DNA of 64,000 bases from Elusimicrobium sp. An273 (GCF_002159705.1 NZ_NFJD01000001.1:62001-126000); one strand, 5' to 3'. Positions 2,729-30,564 are shown, counted from the first letter of the stretch. Notes: generated by a model from the sequence alone, not told the origin. Program-made: numbers and translations.

Positions 2729-3301
2729 ATGAACACGAAAGAACTCGTTTGCCTGGCGGCCCGCTTGGCCGACGGCAAAAAAGCCGAAAACATTAAAGTA
2801 ATTGACCTGGGAGGACTCTCTTCCCTGTGCGATTATATTTTAATTGCCACTGCCACCTCTAAGCCGCATTTGGATGCGGTGGAAGAAGAAATCAGCAAAA
2901 AACTCAAAGAACTGGGCTACTATAAGCTCAACCGCGACGGGGGCGACAGCAACCTCTGGCGCGTGAGCGACTACGGCGGCTTCCTAGCGCATGTGATGAC
3001 TCAGGAAGCGCGCGATTTCTACGCCTTGGACAAAATTTTCAGCTTTGGCAAAGAAATCAACTTTAACGAGCCCGTCAAAAAGGCGGCCAAGAAAAAACCG
3101 GCGGCCAAAAAAGCTGCCGCCAAAAAAACAACGGTCAAAAAAACGACTGCCAAAAAAACAACCGCAGCCAAAAAGACCGCTGCCTCCAAACCGGCAGTCA
3201 AAAAGACTGCCGCCAAAAAAACAACGGCTAAAAAAGCCGTTTCCAAAAAAACCGCTGCCAAAAAAACGACCGCAGCCAAAAAGACCGCCTCTAAAAAATA
3301 A
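2729..3301 (+). CDS. rsfS: Ribosomal silencing factor RsfS with a histone H1-like basic tail
   Basis: Residues 1-112 are a complete RsfS (Iojap/YbeB) domain, with the conserved VIDLGGLSSLCDYILIATATS stretch and a WRVSDYGGFLAHVM segment. RsfS binds ribosomal protein uL14 and blocks subunit joining under nutrient limitation. Residues ~116-190 are an extra tail made almost only of Lys, Ala and Thr (units such as AAKKTT), resembling histone H1-like nucleoid proteins. Normal RsfS is about 105-120 residues, so the tail adds ~75. It is in frame and ends at a single stop 6 nt before argS. A GAGGTGG ribosome binding site precedes the ATG. The tail could bind rRNA, DNA or polyphosphate. Confidence 0.92.
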   Translation: MNTKELVCLAARLADGKKAENIKVIDLGGLSSLCDYILIATATSKPHLDAVEEEISKKLKELGYYKLNRDGGDSNLWRVSDYGGFLAHVMTQEARDFYALDKIFSFGKEINFNEPVKKAAKKKPAAKKAAAKKTTVKKTTAKKTTAAKKTAASKPAVKKTAAKKTTAKKAVSKKTAAKKTTAAKKTASKK

Positions 3302-24363: not shown

Positions 24364-24400
24364 TAAAATATATGTGTAGCCGGTAAACGGCTCATATTTT

Positions 24401-24475
24401 CGGGGAGTGGCTCAGAGGTAGAGCGCTCGCTTGGGGTGCGAGAGATCGCGGGTTCGATTCCCGCCTTCCCGACCA
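24401..24475 (+). tRNA. tRNA-Pro (anticodon GGG)
   Basis: A complete cloverleaf is readable. Acceptor arms CGGGGAG and CTTCCCG pair with one G-U. The anticodon stem CTCGC/GCGAG encloses loop TTGGGGT with anticodon GGG. The T arm has GGTTCGATTCC. The 3' CCA is encoded. It reads CCC/CCU proline codons. Confidence 0.95.
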
Positions 24476-24490
24476 TTTAAAACTATTTAT

Positions 24491-24566
24491 CGGGGCGTAG
24501 CGCAGATGGTAGCGCGCACGGTTCGGGACCGTGAGGTCGTGGGTTCGAATCCCGCCGCCCCGACCA
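24491..24566 (+). tRNA. tRNA-Pro (anticodon CGG)
   Basis: Acceptor arms CGGGGCG and CGCCCCG pair fully. The anticodon stem CACGG/CCGTG encloses TTCGGGA with anticodon CGG. The T loop is GGTTCGAATCC and CCA is encoded. It lies 15 nt after tRNA-Pro(GGG). Its last nucleotides and the following flank are repeated at 28946-28966, marking an integration site. Confidence 0.95.
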
Positions 24567-24579
24567 TTTAAAAAGACAC
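24559..24579 (+). repeat. Direct repeat, left copy (att-like, in tRNA-Pro 3' end)
   Basis: It covers the last 8 nt of tRNA-Pro(CGG) and 13 nt of flank, and is identical to 28946-28966. Confidence 0.8.
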
Positions 24580-24600
24580 TTCTTACGAAGTGTCTTTTTT
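24571..24600 (+). terminator. Intrinsic terminator of the tRNA-Pro pair
   Basis: AAAGACACTTC and GAAGTGTCTTT pair around TTAC and are followed by TTT. Confidence 0.85.
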
Positions 24601-24604
24601 GTTG

Positions 24605-24894
24605 CCTGTGCGGCTTGAGTTCCGTCGGGAAATTGCCTCCGTTTTTATACATCGCCGTCCTAGATACCTTTTAGAGATACAGAAAAAAAGGCCCAAACTG
24701 GGCCTTTTTCTCTAACTGGCAAATAGAAAGGACCCAATGTTGATTTTGTAACAGGAATCTATTTTTAGTTTTCTCATATTTGCAGTCCGCAGGCGTTTTG
24801 ATATAGAACGGGGATTCTTCGGGTGCGCTTAAACTTTATGCCGCAGAAAATCCAAGGATCGTTGAAAATTAGCCCCTAAAGGAGCGATGATACT
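24605..24894. other. Gene-free left part of the island
   Basis: No supportable ORF lies here. The only clear structure is a terminator-like hairpin at 24683-24709 (AAAAAGGCCC, AAACT loop, GGGCCTTTTT), which could end transcription from either side. The rest looks like eroded sequence. Confidence 0.5.
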
Positions 24895-25154
24895 TTACAT
24901 CGCGAGCCACCGGGAGGCTTCCTGTTCTGTTAAATTCATTTTTTAAGAAAAAAGCCTTCTATAAACTTATATACGCCGGTAGCCGCTTTGAACAACGGGA
25001 ACCCGCCCGTTTCAATATCTATCAAATCCCGCTGAATCGTACGTTCGGTTACTTCCAGCTCACGGGCCTCTCGCCGAATGTTTATCCCCTCTCCGTCCAA
25101 CCTATTGAGCAAATATAACAAACGGTTTAATTTTTTAAGGTTCCGCTCTTTCAT
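24895..25154 (-). pseudogene. N-terminal remnant of a WYL/DeoR-type HTH regulator
   Basis: The first 72 codons (25154-24936) encode a winged helix: LYLLNRLDGEGINIRREARE, then LEVTERTIQRDLIDIE, then GVYKFIEGFFLKK. This is the usual N-terminus of YafY/WYL regulators, which are ~300 residues. The frame stops at TGA inside an A run. In the -1 frame an overlapping stretch continues as MNLTEQEASRWLAM before a stop at 24895, resembling the next helix of such proteins. I read this as a frameshifted, truncated gene. A stand-alone HTH protein of 72 residues is the alternative. Confidence 0.5.
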
Positions 25155-25238
25155 AAAATGTGTTTAATCCTATATTTGCTTATATCATACCAACATAAAT
25201 GTTTTATTGCCAACTTCTATTCATAAGCTTCTAAGGAT

Positions 25239-25268
25239 TTGACTTTTATAATTATTTTATAGTATAAT
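25239..25268 (+). promoter_or_regulatory. Promoter of the CHAP-like gene
   Basis: TTGACT (25239-25244) and TATAAT (25263-25268) are separated by 18 bp. The leader is about 80 nt. Confidence 0.65.
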
Positions 25269-25355
25269 ATATATTATTATCCTACCTTTCTATTTGTCTT
25301 TCCCTTCAAAAAGATGTTTCCCCCTCTGTAGTATATACCCACCTAAGGAGTTCTT

Positions 25356-26636
25356 ATGAAAACCTACCACACACGCCGCAATACCGAACCTTACCAAACA
25401 ATGGAATACCAAAACGAACTACACAAGAATCCTCATATAGAGGTTTTGTACTCCGATCCCCCTCAGTTACGAGTAAACGGGGAAATTATTCCCTGGCCGC
25501 AGGGGAAAACACCCGAAGAAGCATACCAGGATTATTTAGAGAGAGAAAGTAAGTCCGTACCTCTTAATCAACTATCAGAAGAAGAACTCTCTCCGGCTGA
25601 AGAACAATATTTTGTTCGCCAGCAAGAATATTCCTTACATCCCTTGCGCCAGCAGTATTTGCAAGACCGGTTGAAACAACTGGACTATTTGGACCGCCAG
25701 CAAGCCCTCCAAGATGACTTTACCACCCGCATGTACGGGAAAAAAGATTACTCTAAAGAGCAGAAAAAAATTCGGCAGGAATTGCAGCTAGGTTCTACTC
25801 CCCAAAAGCGCCAAGCAGAAAAAAAATTCTCTTGGCAAGATTTACAAGCTGGCAGGCGTTCTCAACTACCCGGCACCCAATCCCCCGCGAAACGGTTCTG
25901 GGATATTGCGGACGAACAGACTGGCCAGGAAAATTACCCCAACACCCCTACCGCCGTCAGTAAAGAAATCAGCCGGTATAAACGTGAAAATCCCAATGAG
26001 TATGCTTCCTATTTGAAAAAATGGCAAGACGACCAAAAAAGCTGGCAGGAAATAGACCAGGATATTCAAGACGGCACTCTATCCAAACAAGATATTTCTC
26101 CCGCTCAATGGGATACCATTTTAAGTAAAAGCCAAAAAGAATTAGACGACAAACAAGACCCTCAAAAGAACCCAGAGCAAAAACCTTACTGCAATATCTA
26201 TGCCCGCAACAGACTTCTTCAAAAAGGTATTTATATGGCGCCCGACAAAAATGCAAACCAAATGATTGAAGATATAGATAAAAAAGGTTCCGGCTGGGAG
26301 AAACTGCCTAAAAAAGTAGACGCGCAGGGCAATCCTACCGGTAAATTAGACCACCAAGAAGCCCAACGCCGAGCCGAAGCTGGCGGCACGGTGGTGGCCA
26401 CCTATCACAATCCCAATAATGCCGAACACGGACATATCGCACTTGTGAACGCCGAAGCGGGAATGAAACGCTCCGGCAAATGGGGCGGAGAAGTTCCTTC
26501 AGTAGATGGATATAATCCAGACACTAAACAAATAACCGAGGGAGGCTCTCTAAGCGAACAGTTTAGTACGCCGCGGGAACCCCATATGGATTATTATGAA
26601 TACACGGGCCCTGAAAAAGAAAAGGAAAAAGAATAA
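25356..26636 (+). CDS. Hypothetical protein with C-terminal CHAP/NlpC-like Cys-His domain
   Basis: This 426-residue protein has no signal peptide. Residues ~1-270 are highly charged and rich in Gln, Lys, Glu and Asp, with predicted helix and repeated PEEA/QKxxRQ-type segments. The last ~150 residues look like a papain-fold amidase: Cys at ~279 in YCNIYARN, an Ala-Gly-Gly-Thr-Val-Val strand, and HGHIALVN with His at ~359. This spacing is usual for CHAP or NlpC/P60 domains that cut peptidoglycan. AAGGAG precedes the ATG. It is followed with zero spacing by a secreted protein. An amidase toxin with an immunity partner is one reading, and a phage-type lysin another. I do not recognise the full-length family. 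Confidence 0.6.
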   Translation: MKTYHTRRNTEPYQTMEYQNELHKNPHIEVLYSDPPQLRVNGEIIPWPQGKTPEEAYQDYLERESKSVPLNQLSEEELSPAEEQYFVRQQEYSLHPLRQQYLQDRLKQLDYLDRQQALQDDFTTRMYGKKDYSKEQKKIRQELQLGSTPQKRQAEKKFSWQDLQAGRRSQLPGTQSPAKRFWDIADEQTGQENYPNTPTAVSKEISRYKRENPNEYASYLKKWQDDQKSWQEIDQDIQDGTLSKQDISPAQWDTILSKSQKELDDKQDPQKNPEQKPYCNIYARNRLLQKGIYMAPDKNANQMIEDIDKKGSGWEKLPKKVDAQGNPTGKLDHQEAQRRAEAGGTVVATYHNPNNAEHGHIALVNAEAGMKRSGKWGGEVPSVDGYNPDTKQITEGGSLSEQFSTPREPHMDYYEYTGPEKEKEKE

Positions 26637-27551
26637 ATGTATAATAAAAAAATGAAACATTTATTTGCGCTATTTTTGCTTAGTGTATGCTGGTTAAGTG
26701 GGCAGGCCGATTCCCTGCCCACCAATCAGGAGGATAAACCCAAATACACAGAAGCCGTCGTTTATTCCCGCTTTCGGGGGTTTAATATGCCTAAGCCCGA
26801 TGAAAACAACGCCTATGTATTAGGAGAATTTACCTATGGCAATGAATGGACGGATTACTTTATAAGAGAAAATAATTTATATTTTAATTGGTCCGGGACT
26901 CTTTATTTTCATCTTATTCCGGCAGATCCCTTTCCTATCTTGGAAAGTTTTCAATTGTGGCAAGATAATTACCAAGAATTTGAGAAACAATTTTTAGCAG
27001 AATTTGCCGTCCCGCATTTAGACGGAAAGAATTTTTCGCTTCCATGCGGAAAAAATTCCTCGGTAGAATTTATAAAACAAATCAAAAAGGGTGCCCCCGG
27101 AGAAGAAAGTGACGTATTCTACAAAGTCATCTGGCATAAGGACGGGAAACAACATACGTTTACCCGCGAAGAATGCCCCGTCCCGGTGATAGATTTTCCG
27201 CCCGGCCAATTTGCTTATTGCGACGAAAATATACTCTATTACGACGGCTTTGACGATTTTCCATGGCCGGGAAGAAATAAAGCCCGGCGCGGCATTTTCT
27301 TTTGTGATTTGCAAAATCACACCCGCGGGGCTTATGCCGCCACCCCGTACGAAACAAAAGAGAAATCCGCCCTTTATCCTTACAATCCCATCGGAATACC
27401 GGGCACAAATTGGATTTTTTATTTACAGGATTCCGACGAATCTCCCCGCAAAAGCCAGCTTGTGGTGCGTCCCAAACTAACACCGGCGCAAGCGGAAAAA
27501 GCCGCCCAAGAATACCAAAAGTTTATTCAAAGTAACACTAAAAATGAATAA
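26637..27551 (+). CDS. Secreted or periplasmic hypothetical protein
   Basis: The 304-residue protein has a signal peptide (MKHLFALFLLSVCWLSGQADS). The mature part is acidic, rich in Phe, Tyr and Pro, and has four Cys. I do not recognise the family. It starts directly after the stop of the CHAP-like gene (TAAATG), with AAAGGA upstream, so the two are co-expressed. An alternative ATG at 26652 has TATAAT exactly 6 nt before it. Its place behind a possible amidase would suit a periplasmic immunity protein, but nothing in its sequence proves this. Its 3' end overlaps the start of the next, broken gene. Confidence 0.6.
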   Translation: MYNKKMKHLFALFLLSVCWLSGQADSLPTNQEDKPKYTEAVVYSRFRGFNMPKPDENNAYVLGEFTYGNEWTDYFIRENNLYFNWSGTLYFHLIPADPFPILESFQLWQDNYQEFEKQFLAEFAVPHLDGKNFSLPCGKNSSVEFIKQIKKGAPGEESDVFYKVIWHKDGKQHTFTREECPVPVIDFPPGQFAYCDENILYYDGFDDFPWPGRNKARRGIFFCDLQNHTRGAYAATPYETKEKSALYPYNPIGIPGTNWIFYLQDSDESPRKSQLVVRPKLTPAQAEKAAQEYQKFIQSNTKNE

Positions 27552-28583
27552 ATTATTGTTCATTCTGCTCCTTTTTCTTTCCTGTATGTCCTCCCGTGCC
27601 AACGACTCCGCCGGTTATGTGTTGCCCACGGGCGGCGTGGTGTTTGAAAAACAAGACGGAATTAAAATGAAAACCGAAGCTCTCTATATCCGCCGGGGCA
27701 GATAGAAGTAAATTATCTGTTTGAAAACACCACAGACAAAGACATTACCACCCAGGTTTTCTTCCCCCTGCAGCCTATTGCGGCGGTAGCGGATTATTAT
27801 GGATATACCCAGGAAACCTTACACCAGTTTCATTTCAAATTGTGGGTAAATGAAAGCCTAAAAAATATCAAGCCATTTTTAACCTAAAACAAGGCAAACG
27901 CGCTGTACCTGCAGTGGCTAATTCTCTGTGAAAATACCCGGAGGAAGGGCTGAAAGAATCTTTATTTCACGAGCGTGTATCAGCGATGAAAGAAAAAGAC
28001 CGCCAACTATTAATAGACGGGAATTTCCTGCACTGGGGGCAGCGTATTTCTTCCCAGTAAAGAACCGGGCGACTACGAAGAAGCCGAGGGCTGGACGATT
28101 ACCGACCGTGAGGAGGATTTGTGGACAAAAGAAATTTCCTATTTTTGGGTTCAAACTTTTCCCGCCGGCAAAACCGTGCATATCCGCCACACCTATACAC
28201 CTTCTGCCAAAACCACCAATACGGGTATGCCTTTTTCCTCTTGCATCAACCCCGACACATGGGACTACCAGGATTTCGTCCGCATTCCGACTCCGACGGG
28301 CACCGACCACCTGTGGGATAAGTTAGAAGCCCAGCACTATGTGGAATACATCCTCACCACCGCCAACAACTGGCAGGGGTTTATAGATGATTTCAACCTG
28401 CTGGTGGAAAGCCCGCTTAAAAGCGTGGGCTGTTTTGAAGGCCATCCTTTCTACGGTGAGAAGTATTTTGCGCTTAGCCGCAAGTATTTCTACCCGGAGA
28501 GAAATTTGTCGGTGGATTTCTTAGAAAAGGGCACTATCCCGTCCTCTTACAAACCTGCAAGCGATCCGGCCTCTTCTGCGTAA
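27545..28583 (+). pseudogene. DUF4424-like secreted protein, broken by several frameshifts
   Basis: A signal peptide (MNKLLFILLLFLSCMSSRA) begins at 27545. The homology then moves between frames. NDSAGYVLPTGGVVFEKQDG runs from 27601 to a stop at 27703. IEVNYLFENTTDKDITTQVF continues in another frame from about 27699. Further pieces follow, and the longest (28119-28583) has YFWVQTFPAGKTVHIRHTYTP. The order and spacing match DUF4424 proteins (N-terminal NDSA...GGL.F, then FENTTDKD, FFPL, and FPAGKTV...HTY). At least five single-base lesions are needed to restore one frame. The intact genes on both sides argue against general sequencing error. Function unknown. Confidence 0.6.
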
Positions 28584-28753
28584 ACGGCCCCGCCAATATG
28601 CGCAAGGAGCCCAACGGAGAAATTGTCGGAGAAATGAAAGACGGCACCTATGTTTGGGTCTGGCCCGGGGAAAAACAAGGCAACTGGTATCCTGTTTTGC
28701 AAAATAATTTACAGGGATATACACACAAACAAAATTTAATAAAAGTATTTTAA
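28553..28753 (+). pseudogene. SH3b-domain fragment
   Basis: An open frame of 66 codons without a start of its own reads CVNGPANMRKEPNGEIVGEM, then DGTYVWVWP, GNWYPV and GYTHKQNLIKVF. That is a bacterial SH3 pattern (NxRxxPNGxxIG ... WYxV ... GYxHxxxL). It overlaps the end of the DUF4424 remnant in a different frame and may be its former C-terminus or a separate gene. It was probably a peptidoglycan-binding module. Confidence 0.5.
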
Positions 28754-28759
28754 TCCCTG

Positions 28760-28900
28760 TTTTTCCCTGTTCTAGGGTGTAGGGAATGTATATGCAAAGG
28801 CAAAGCCTCCGTATAAAATAAGCGGGGGCACTCAGCTTTTGCCCACATACAAAGGGCAACTTTTACGGTTTTTCCCTGTATTTTGCCTGATAAACAGGGA
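28760..28900. repeat. Short repeats inside the right end of the island
   Basis: TTTTTCCCTGT occurs at 28760-28770 and 28869-28879, and the inverted core ACAGGGA lies at 28894-28900. They lie within 190 bp of the right direct repeat and could be remnants of recombinase arm sites. The rest of 28754-28945 has no ORF. Confidence 0.3.
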
Positions 28901-28945
28901 TTTTGCTTCCCCGTTCTTACACCCTTTGGCAGTCCGCACGCCGTG

Positions 28946-28966
28946 CCCGACCATTTAAAAAGACAC
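28946..28966 (+). repeat. Direct repeat, right copy (att-like)
   Basis: It is identical to 24559-24579. The sequence before it is not a tRNA, so only the 3' fragment and flank were duplicated. Confidence 0.8.
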
Positions 28967-28988
28967 CTTTTCCAAGGTGTCTTTTTTG
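28957..28988 (+). terminator. Duplicated tRNA-type terminator
   Basis: AAGACACCTT and AAGGTGTCTT pair around TTCC and are followed by T residues. It is a diverged copy of the hairpin at 24571-24600. Confidence 0.75.
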
Positions 28989-29008
28989 TTTATCTATGCA
29001 AGGTTCAT

Positions 29009-29593
29009 CTATTCAATTGGAGTTGTGGGTTTGGACGGGTCAATTTGATGGCCTTTTTCATCAAACAGTGTGTATATCCTCTCTATTTCGGAAACTATCA
29101 TTTCATCCAGCGAATTCCATGATTTAAGAGGGGTTGCATCATAGCATTCGCAATAATACACTTTGTCATCCGTTGTATTCAAATAAAGTTTGGATCCGTC
29201 ATATTTATAAGTTCCAAAAAAGAACATCGCCGGTGATGAATTCTTGGGCCTGCCATACTTCTGGATATCTTCAACATTAAACGGATACCATAAATCCAAA
29301 TCTGATCTGTTGTATGATGTTCTGCAACCATGAAAAGCTAATGTGCAATTCATGATATCAAAGCCATTGGCGACATTCACCAAAAAATCTTTGTATATTT
29401 TCGGAATAGCTGTTCCCAAGCTTTTTTCCAAGTTGCATATTTCGGCTTCCGTAGCGCATGGATACATAACATTCAACCACGCAAACTCGGCAATATGGGG
29501 CGCTTTCCCTATCAATAAAGCCCCGTTTTTAGAATGCTCCACCCCCAGCGGGGCGTAACGCATTAATAATTTTTCTAATTTTTCTCTTGTCAT
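29009..29593 (-). CDS. SMI1/KNR4 (SUKH) family protein
   Basis: This 194-residue protein has the SUKH core: EAEICNLEKSLGTAIPKIYKDFL (helix ending in the IPxxYKDFL motif), NGFDIMNCTLAFHG, and a C-terminal beta region. SUKH proteins commonly act as immunity proteins against polymorphic nuclease toxins. No toxin gene is adjacent. The codon use is AT-rich like the island, although it lies just outside the right direct repeat. The start at 29593 avoids overlap with the upstream gene; an in-frame ATG at 29674 would overlap it by 52 nt. No Shine-Dalgarno is visible. Confidence 0.72.
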   Translation of the reverse strand: MTREKLEKLLMRYAPLGVEHSKNGALLIGKAPHIAEFAWLNVMYPCATEAEICNLEKSLGTAIPKIYKDFLVNVANGFDIMNCTLAFHGCRTSYNRSDLDLWYPFNVEDIQKYGRPKNSSPAMFFFGTYKYDGSKLYLNTTDDKVYYCECYDATPLKSWNSLDEMIVSEIERIYTLFDEKGHQIDPSKPTTPIE

Positions 29594-29622
29594 TGATTGA
29601 ATTTCGTGTCTTGCAAAAACTT

Positions 29623-30564
29623 TTACGGAACCAAAACTATTTCTTCCACGCCTTCCACCGTGCAATCTTTCCACAAGTTTTGCGGCGGGAGCCGGCGGCC
29701 GTCTATCACCTGGGGATCCCCCAGCATTTTTTCCAACGCCAACACCAAATCCATATAATGCCCGGCGCCCATTTCCGCAAACACCACATCATATTGGTTC
29801 AGCGCCGCCGCAATGTTTTGCAGCATGAACCGGCTCCGCGCCAGCCCGGCAGCATGATTCAAGCGGTAAAAAGGCGTTTTAGTTACCCACTTTTCGGGAT
29901 AAATGTTCATGAGGTCTTGGTAGAGGCGGATGAAATCGGTTTCAGCAAAATTTTGTTTGTAATACTTTTTAAAATAAGCATTCAGACGTTTTTCGGTAAA
30001 CAGTTCGCCCCACGCGGCATGGTGATCCCGCTTGGCATACGAAGCAATTGCTTCCGCGGGCGTAAACGGCTGATCGGTTTCCCGGGCGCGGCCATACCCA
30101 TCGCGAATCATCCACAGCATTTGCCAATCCTCGTACGAAAATCCGTTTTCTTTGGCAAACTGCCATTGTTTTTCAAGTGACAGATCGGCCCGCACCAGCG
30201 GGATTTGCCATTTGCCGCAGAGCGCGGCGGTATAGCTGTCCTCCGCTTCCGTGCACGGGCCGCCAAACACTTCTGCGGGCTCCCGCTCAACCAAAGCCAC
30301 CTGTGGGGCATACACGTCAAACGCATATTGCACGGACGGCAGAGACTCCGCCCCATGCCGCGCCGCCAATAGTACCAGTTTTTTATCCCCTTTTTGATAC
30401 ACCGTCAAGAAAGGAGGGGTCGGGAACAATTCATATTTTTCCTGGTGAAGCTCTCTGCGCGCGTCAGACAAGGCGGAAAAATCCGCCGTAAACGGCTGCG
30501 CCGCCGCGTAACTGCACAAAAAAAGGCTAAAAATTTCCCAAATAAATGTATGCATTTTGACCAT
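29623..30564 (-). CDS. Secreted TraB/GumN- or ChaN-like protein
   Basis: This 313-residue protein has a signal peptide (about residues 1-22). Features recall the Tiki/TraB-GumN/EreA-ChaN superfamily: an early AARHGAESLPSV segment after a strand, a PQVALVEREP motif (family Glu-x-x-Pro region), RDGYGRARETDQ in the middle, and FAEMGAGHYMDLVLALEKMLG near the end with the final Gly-x-Gly-His. Some relatives are metal-dependent hydrolases. The assignment rests on motif spacing alone. The next gene downstream on this strand is the SUKH gene. A -10-like TAAATT lies 6 nt before the ATG. Confidence 0.5.
   Translation of the reverse strand: MVKMHTFIWEIFSLFLCSYAAAQPFTADFSALSDARRELHQEKYELFPTPPFLTVYQKGDKKLVLLAARHGAESLPSVQYAFDVYAPQVALVEREPAEVFGGPCTEAEDSYTAALCGKWQIPLVRADLSLEKQWQFAKENGFSYEDWQMLWMIRDGYGRARETDQPFTPAEAIASYAKRDHHAAWGELFTEKRLNAYFKKYYKQNFAETDFIRLYQDLMNIYPEKWVTKTPFYRLNHAAGLARSRFMLQNIAAALNQYDVVFAEMGAGHYMDLVLALEKMLGDPQVIDGRRLPPQNLWKDCTVEGVEEIVLVP

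What the first reader, a model, noticed from the sequence alone, without database searches (positions are those of the whole stretch)
24559..28966. tRNA-Pro(CGG)-targeted genomic island bounded by a 21-bp direct repeat, without an integrase
The last 8 nt of tRNA-Pro(CGG) plus 13 nt of flank are repeated exactly 4.4 kb downstream, each followed by a similar hairpin terminator. The enclosed genes are AT-richer, partly broken and unlike their neighbours. The duplication is the footprint of site-specific insertion at a tRNA 3' end, and the missing recombinase implies decay or mobilisation in trans.
Basis: partly seen in the sequence, partly recalled or inferred. Interest (0 to 1): 0.7.

Follow-up and report, generated by a model that had tools for sequence, protein, structure and literature searches.

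The report
tRNA-anchored cassette missing its recombinase
A 4.4-kb mobile DNA cassette sits at the end of a tRNA gene in a gut Elusimicrobium relative; its kin in sister species form head-to-tail arrays of toxin and defence cassettes that appear to be inserted by large serine recombinases, an enzyme class thought to use tRNA genes only rarely.

Summary
A 21-bp exact repeat (45 nt, 89%) joins the 3' end of tRNA-Pro(CGG) to a copy 4,387 bp downstream. The enclosed DNA is AT-rich (44% GC vs 53.6%), partly broken and has no recombinase. The host is a Ca. Avelusimicrobium (Elusimicrobiaceae) gut MAG.

The right copy is more than a tRNA scar: it ends a conserved ~119-bp right-end block that recurs in tandem at the same tRNA in sister species. 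A conserved ~171-bp left-end block follows the tRNA. Sister elements with the same ends carry a large serine recombinase (LSR) beside tRNA-Pro; the window genome has none. The window unit equals a 21.5-kb LSR-bearing element of genome G007 (95% identity over 4.2 kb) minus 17 kb that includes the LSR. Other LSR-less units, 94-99% identical between species with 70-82% identical chromosomes, were exchanged as whole units bounded by the repeats.

Across Elusimicrobiaceae, LSR clades track tRNA isotypes (Pro, Val, Ser, Asp, His; one Arg). An uninterrupted site was found for a tRNA-Ser element, but none at this tRNA-Pro in 66 genomes. Decay is supported; mobilisation in trans is plausible but unproven. 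LSR use of tRNA genes is described as rare.

The parts
24401..24475 (+). tRNA-Pro(GGG), neighbour of the target; shares CCCGACCATTTAAAA at its 3' end
   Evidence: ARAGORN; repeat D1
24491..24566 (+). tRNA-Pro(CGG), the target gene (CCA encoded)
   Evidence: ARAGORN; same position in the relatives examined
24559..24579 (+). left copy of the 21-bp repeat (attL side); crossover inferred inside CCCGACCATTT
24567..24737 (+). conserved left-end block: terminator hairpin (24570-24599) and a second hairpin (24681-24713)
   Evidence: shared with LSR-bearing elements of G007, G016, G035 and with G029, G048, G052; homology stops at 24736-24738
24738..24762 (.). junction where about 17.1 kb of a G007-like element, including its LSR, is absent
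   Evidence: comparison with G007 and G029
24936..25154 (-). truncated HTH_11 regulator (72 aa; about 307 aa in G029 and G007)
   Evidence: Pfam HTH_11; lengths
25356..26636 (+). 426-aa putative effector: N-terminal region shared with other array proteins, C-terminal domain with invariant Cys279 and a conserved HGH motif
   Evidence: no Pfam, PHROG or PDB sequence match
26637..27551 (+). 304-aa protein with apparent signal peptide; putative immunity partner (function inferred)
   Evidence: follows homologous effector C-terminal domains in G007, G047, G048, G052
27544..28753 (+). broken DUF4424 gene
   Evidence: PF14415 on the 28119-28583 fragment; full-length copies in sister species
28872..28990 (+). 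conserved right-end block, with CCCTGTATTTTGCCTGATAAACAGGG at 28874-28899; longer homology from 28750 in several relatives
   Evidence: recurs in tandem at the same hotspot
28946..28966 (+). right copy of the 21-bp repeat (attR side); terminator hairpin follows to 28986

Best explanation
The 4.4-kb unit is an integrated element, now without its recombinase, of a family of tRNA-targeting mobile elements driven by large serine recombinases (LSRs) in Elusimicrobiaceae. Mechanism: the LSR recombines the joined right and left ends of a circular element (attP) with the 3' end of tRNA-Pro(CGG), with the crossover inside CCCGACCATTT. The element's left end supplies a new transcription terminator behind the tRNA; the old tRNA end and terminator move to the far side (attR). 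Because each insertion leaves a usable site, units accumulate head to tail. The cargo here is a putative toxin-immunity pair; other units carry type II CRISPR-Cas, restriction-modification or other defence genes. In this genome the LSR segment has been lost, leaving both ends and the cargo. Shown from sequence: the ends, the hotspot, the missing segment, unit-wise sharing between species, and the LSR-tRNA association. Inferred: LSR catalysis, the exact crossover point, the direction of the loss, toxin function, and whether LSR-less units move in trans by the LSR.
For: Same left and right end blocks in LSR-bearing elements at the same tRNA. LSR with Resolvase and Recombinase domains beside tRNA-Pro in G007, G012, G016, G031, G035, G048, G050 and others. 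Window 24763-28990 is 95.3% identical to the right part of a 21.5-kb LSR-bearing element in G007, and 24400-24737 to its left end, with 17.1 kb missing between. LSR-less units B and C are 98.8% and 94.4% identical between species whose chromosomes are 68-82% identical, with homology bounded by the att blocks. 45 of 55 near-full-length LSR homologues have a convergent tRNA within 4.5 kb, none in the other orientation; targets cluster on the LSR tree, 0 of 200 shuffles as low. Uninterrupted tRNA-Ser(GGA) sites in G010 and G057 match the joined flanks of a G047 LSR element.
Against: No uninterrupted tRNA-Pro(CGG) site was found in 66 genomes. Several array-bearing genomes, G047 (2 contigs, 96% complete) among them, have no Pro-clade LSR today, so the arrays need not be active. 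The end blocks are long enough for homologous recombination. All data are MAGs with contig breaks in these repeats. Nothing was tested by experiment.
Confidence: 0.8

Rival explanations
1. Cassette shuffling by homologous recombination. The end blocks and terminators (45-240 bp, 85-98% identical) are long enough for general recombination of incoming DNA, so LSR-less units move and are lost by RecA, and the LSR matters only for rare founding insertions.
For: Arrays without any Pro-clade LSR in the genome (G000, G010, G029, G047, G052). Shared homology extends past the cores into the neighbouring end blocks in the G012-G029 comparison.
Against: Does not explain why LSRs sit at tRNA 3' ends in one orientation or why the crossover marks coincide with the tRNA 3' end. 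It can only act once at least one unit is already present.
Confidence: 0.25
2. A tyrosine integrase, resident or lost, inserted the unit, as is usual for tRNA islands; the LSR is only passenger cargo.
For: Tyrosine integrases are the usual tRNA-targeting enzymes (PMC4383910). The window genome has two non-Xer-sized tyrosine recombinases elsewhere.
Against: No tyrosine recombinase match was listed inside any of the mapped arrays. G012, G016, G021 and G053, which have arrays or array ends, show only two tyrosine recombinases each, the Xer-sized pair. LSR clade tracks tRNA target.
Confidence: 0.06
3. The repeat is the remnant of a duplicated tRNA gene or of a shared tRNA terminator and not an integration mark; the AT-rich genes are unrelated.
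For: The adjacent tRNA-Pro(GGG) shares the same flank, and G003 has a second full tRNA-Pro(CGG) downstream, so tRNA duplication does occur here.
Against: Sequence upstream of the right copy is a conserved element end unlike the tRNA body, recurring in tandem in many species. Cargo identity between species far exceeds that of the chromosome.
Confidence: 0.02

Closest known systems
Serine-recombinase elements that use tRNA genes: mycobacterial AICEs at tRNA-Leu and Ralstonia phage phiRSM1 at tRNA-Ser (both as reported in PMC3218068)
   Same: A serine recombinase with integration at a tRNA gene
   Different: Here one LSR family covers at least five tRNA isotypes by clade, and at tRNA-Pro it is linked to tandem arrays of recombinase-less cassettes; host phylum is Elusimicrobiota; no conjugation or capsid genes were noticed
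Staphylococcal cassette chromosome (SCC) and its ccr-less pseudo-SCC elements (from general knowledge, not looked up here)
   Same: Large serine recombinase next to a fixed chromosomal 3' end, tandem composite islands, members that lack the recombinase
   Different: Target is a tRNA gene, not rlmH; ends, recombinase clade and cargo are different; no ccrAB pair or mec genes
Cis-mobilizable elements (CIMEs) (from general knowledge)
   Same: Both att sites present, no recombinase, kin elements with the recombinase at the same site
   Different: CIMEs are defined with ICEs and tyrosine integrases; no conjugative relative was identified here, and mobilisation was not tested
Integron cassette arrays (from general knowledge)
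   Same: Ordered array at one fixed site; each unit ends in a conserved right-hand site
   Different: No IntI tyrosine integrase; units are about 2-22 kb with several genes and their own terminators and regulators
Tycheposons and tRNA-repeat islands of streamlined marine and freshwater bacteria (PMC10872708)
   Same: tRNA-anchored flexible islands with repeated tRNA ends and varied cargo
   Different: Those are associated with a tyrosine recombinase (XerD-like)

Membership tests
tRNA-gene genomic island (Islander definition, PMC4383910) | tRNA gene plus displaced tRNA fragment in direct orientation flanking foreign DNA | tested here: met
   the tRNA part of the repeat is only 8 nt
tRNA-gene genomic island (Islander definition, PMC4383910) | a tyrosine integrase gene on board | tested here: not met
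   none in the unit or in the mapped arrays of kin
tRNA-targeting LSR element family described here | left-end and right-end blocks shared with LSR-bearing elements at the same tRNA | tested here: met
tRNA-targeting LSR element family described here | LSR gene (PF00239 + PF07508) convergent with the tRNA | tested here: not met
   absent from the window unit and its genome; present in kin. The window unit is filed as an LSR-less derivative, not as a complete member
SCC | Ccr serine recombinase and insertion at rlmH | tested here: not met
   target is tRNA-Pro(CGG); works like SCC only
CIME | att sites retained, recombinase absent, kin element with recombinase at the same site | tested here: met
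CIME | mobilisation by a resident conjugative element | not testable with these tools
   no assay; no conjugative relative identified
Integron cassette | IntI-type tyrosine integrase at the array head | tested here: not met
Integron cassette | folded attC site | not tested
   right-end block has inverted repeats by eye; no pair-conservation test was run
Tycheposon | tyrosine recombinase, tRNA-anchored | tested here: not met
   LSR instead, in kin; definition as given in PMC10872708
Phage satellite | phage packaging gene without capsid genes | tested here: inconclusive
   terminase large subunits in kin elements; none in the window unit; not every kin gene was scanned
Polymorphic toxin-immunity pair (cargo) | shared N-terminus joined to variable C-terminal domains, with an immunity gene next door | tested here: inconclusive
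   modular termini and a fixed neighbour gene seen; the predicted fold gives only weak hits to cysteine toxins, best E 0.18

The most novel reading that the evidence does not exclude
A tRNA-anchored, serine-recombinase cassette-array system: one LSR family, split into clades each devoted to the 3' ends of particular tRNAs (Pro, Val, Ser, Asp, His, perhaps Arg), which at tRNA-Pro inserts and collects small recombinase-less defence and toxin cassettes in trans. Its elements share a right-end signal (CCCTGTATTTTxCCTG...CAGGG) across different att specificities, which points to a common accessory factor for excision, replication or packaging.
Probability: 0.45. Interest if true: 0.8.

Novelty: new variant of a known kind. 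Interest (0 to 1): 0.62.

Why it matters
Serine recombinases are said to integrate into tRNA genes only rarely (PMC3218068) or not to be known to do so (PMC4383910, 2015), and the Islander island finder restricted itself to tyrosine integrases for that reason. A recombinase family with clade-by-clade tRNA specificity would be a natural series for learning how large serine recombinases choose their sites, and could supply integrases for conserved tRNA landing sites. The arrays also show how CRISPR-Cas9, restriction systems and toxin-immunity cassettes are exchanged in a little-studied gut phylum.

Tried and rejected
A tyrosine integrase in the unit or in the arrays: searched, none placed there. 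A recombinase remnant in the window: no significant tblastn hit. A strict uninterrupted site at tRNA-Pro(CGG), using joined flanks over the whole genus: none, only separate left and right matches. The right-end motif as a dif/Xer site: considered, but head-tail differences place the crossover at the tRNA 3' end about 50 bp away. A known RNA family in the end blocks: only the two tRNAs exceed their curated thresholds. PDB sequence searches for the two intact cargo proteins: nothing significant. Fold search of the effector model (pLDDT 70): no hit better than E 0.18; a papain-like toxin ranks first and a type VI amidase fourth, recorded only as a hint. The PADLOC scan failed on a coordinate error and was not repeated.

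Full report
WHAT WAS CLAIMED AND WHETHER IT IS THERE. The repeat is real. tRNA-Pro(CGG) is at 24491-24566. The 21-mer CCCGACCATTTAAAAAGACAC is at 24559 and 28946, extending to 45 nt at 89% identity, with a different but well-paired hairpin in each terminator. Simulated sequences never gave a match longer than 15 nt. The DNA between is 44.0% GC against 53.6% elsewhere, and no equal-sized window outside falls below 50.8%.

HOST. The MerR gene before the tRNAs finds relatives recorded as Elusimicrobiaceae, uncultured Elusimicrobium and Candidatus Avelusimicrobium excrementipullorum, many from gut or faecal samples. G001 in the same-genus set has the same contig position as that last MAG, so the window is taken to belong to that genus. 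The genus holds 66 genomes in the searchable set.

THE RIGHT COPY IS AN ELEMENT END. The matching sequence in relatives does not stop at the tRNA fragment. A block of about 119 bp (window 28872-28990), containing CCCTGTATTTTGCCTGATAAACAGGG and ending GCAGTCCGCACGCCGTGCCCGACCATTT plus terminator, recurs at the same hotspot in many species, three times in tandem in G052 and over several contigs in G048. Beside the tRNA, a left-end block of about 171 bp (24567-24737) is shared by many elements and stops at 24736-24738 in several comparisons. The copies differ upstream of CCCGACCATTT (tRNA body against element end) and agree after it, so the crossover is inferred to lie inside it.

THE RECOMBINASE. 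In G007, G012, G016, G035, G048, G050 and others, the first element after tRNA-Pro(CGG) carries a gene of about 550 aa related to one with Resolvase and Recombinase domains, that is, a large serine recombinase; in G050 it is followed by DUF2924 genes. The window's genome has no such gene. In G007 one element of 21.5 kb with both ends carries the recombinase near its left end and the window unit at its right end. Window 24763-28990 is 95.3% identical to it, window 24400-24737 matches the G007 tRNA and left end, and 17.1 kb is missing between. G029 lacks a slightly smaller overlapping segment (16.7 kb) and keeps a full 307-aa regulator, which in the window is cut to 72 aa. That the window lost the segment, rather than G007 gaining it, is inferred from the cut regulator and the broken DUF4424 gene.

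UNITS MOVE AS UNITS. Unit B, without a recombinase, is 98.8% identical over 4,464 bp between G012 and G029, while their right flanks are 75-82% identical. Unit C is 94.4% identical between G012 and G052; it sits next to the tRNA in one and last in the other. The homologies begin and end at the att blocks. A Cas9-bearing unit is 97.8% identical between G024 and G035, ending at the right-end terminator, where flanking chromosome is 74-83% identical. The window unit is 97.5% identical to G058's copy, while the next conserved gene is 71% identical.

A WIDER FAMILY. I took 55 near-full-length homologues of the recombinase. 45 have a tRNA gene within 4.5 kb after the stop codon, always in the convergent orientation; none has one in the other orientation. 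My rough estimate of the chance rate is 5-7% each, assuming 40-45 tRNA genes per 1.4 Mb (a recalled figure, not counted here). Of the ten exceptions, two are cut by contig ends (G035, where the contig starts inside the tRNA, and G049) and one (G036) has its tRNA-Pro 15 kb away. Targets are Pro(CGG), Val, Ser, Asp and His, with Arg in one case from another genus; two further genera of the family show the same layout. On a maximum-likelihood tree the targets follow the clades: 13 changes, shuffled mean 34.6, 0 of 200 shuffles as low. The Ser label is not one clade. Short repeats of the tRNA end close the elements at Val (10 nt) and His (11 nt). For a tRNA-Ser(GGA) element of G047, the joined flanks match uninterrupted sites in G010 and G057, and the tRNA with its first downstream bases in G000 too, with the junction CTCTCCG|CCATTT. 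That element's insertion replaces the encoded CCA end of the tRNA. The CCCTG...CAGGG motif lies near the far end of these other elements as well, so it is not tied to one att specificity.

CARGO. The window unit has a cut regulator, a 426-aa protein, a 304-aa protein with an apparent signal peptide and a broken DUF4424 gene. The 426-aa protein shares its N-terminal region with others whose C-termini differ. Cys279 is invariant and an HGH motif is largely conserved. The model has moderate confidence and its fold hits are weak. A toxin-immunity pair is my reading, not a result. Elsewhere the units carry Cas9 and Cas1, a DnaB-like helicase, phage terminase large subunits, a ParB-methylase and cytosine methylases. 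No capsid genes were noticed, so some elements may be phage satellites.

WHAT REMAINS OPEN. Several array-bearing genomes lack a Pro-clade recombinase today. All data are MAGs with contig breaks in these repeats. Whether recombinase-less units move by the LSR in trans or by homologous recombination between the end blocks cannot be decided from sequence.

KNOWN OR NEW. Serine recombinases at tRNA genes are described as rare, with mycobacterial AICEs at tRNA-Leu and phage phiRSM1 at tRNA-Ser as examples (PMC3218068), and in 2015 as not known (PMC4383910). Ten literature searches in an open-access library found no description of these elements in Elusimicrobiota, but that library lacks most subscription journals. 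I rate it a new variant of a known kind: it works like SCC, but with tRNA targets and recombinase clades that follow tRNA isotype.

Noticed in passing
L049 14156-19015; L108 1568-6427; L114 18401-19715 with L115 713-4288: A type II CRISPR-Cas system (Cas9, Cas1, probable Cas2, with a repeat array beside it in L049) is cargo of these tRNA-Pro elements and is 97.8% identical between species with 74-83% identical flanks.
   Followed up: partly
L105 9940-12987; L238 6470-9654: LSR elements at tRNA-Pro and tRNA-His carry a phage terminase large subunit and a ParB-methylase, with no capsid genes noticed; possible phage satellites.
   Followed up: partly
window 28874-28899; L236 12959; L237 10409; L238 11836; L239 14350; L242 14951: A CCCTG-box motif (CCCTGTATTTTxCCTG...CAGGG) sits near the far end of LSR elements with different tRNA targets; function unknown.
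   Followed up: partly
window 29009-29674: A SUKH-family (SMI1/KNR4) gene, 39% GC, lies just right of the unit and has no DNA match in the other 65 genomes of the genus; other species have a 439-aa gene there.
   Followed up: partly
L236 2738-2760 and 13029-13050: Insertion of the tRNA-Ser(GGA) element swaps the gene-encoded CCA end for TAT, so the tRNA would need CCA addition by enzyme.
   Followed up: partly
L059, L062, L065, L066 (about 200-500 bp after tRNA-Pro(CGG)); L058 3821-3896: More distant species show short tandem copies of the tRNA-Pro(CGG) 3' end, or a second full tRNA-Pro(CGG), without the end blocks.
   Followed up: no
window 3114-3227 and 3161-3288: Exact direct repeats of 20-21 nt lie close together near the left of the window.
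   Followed up: no
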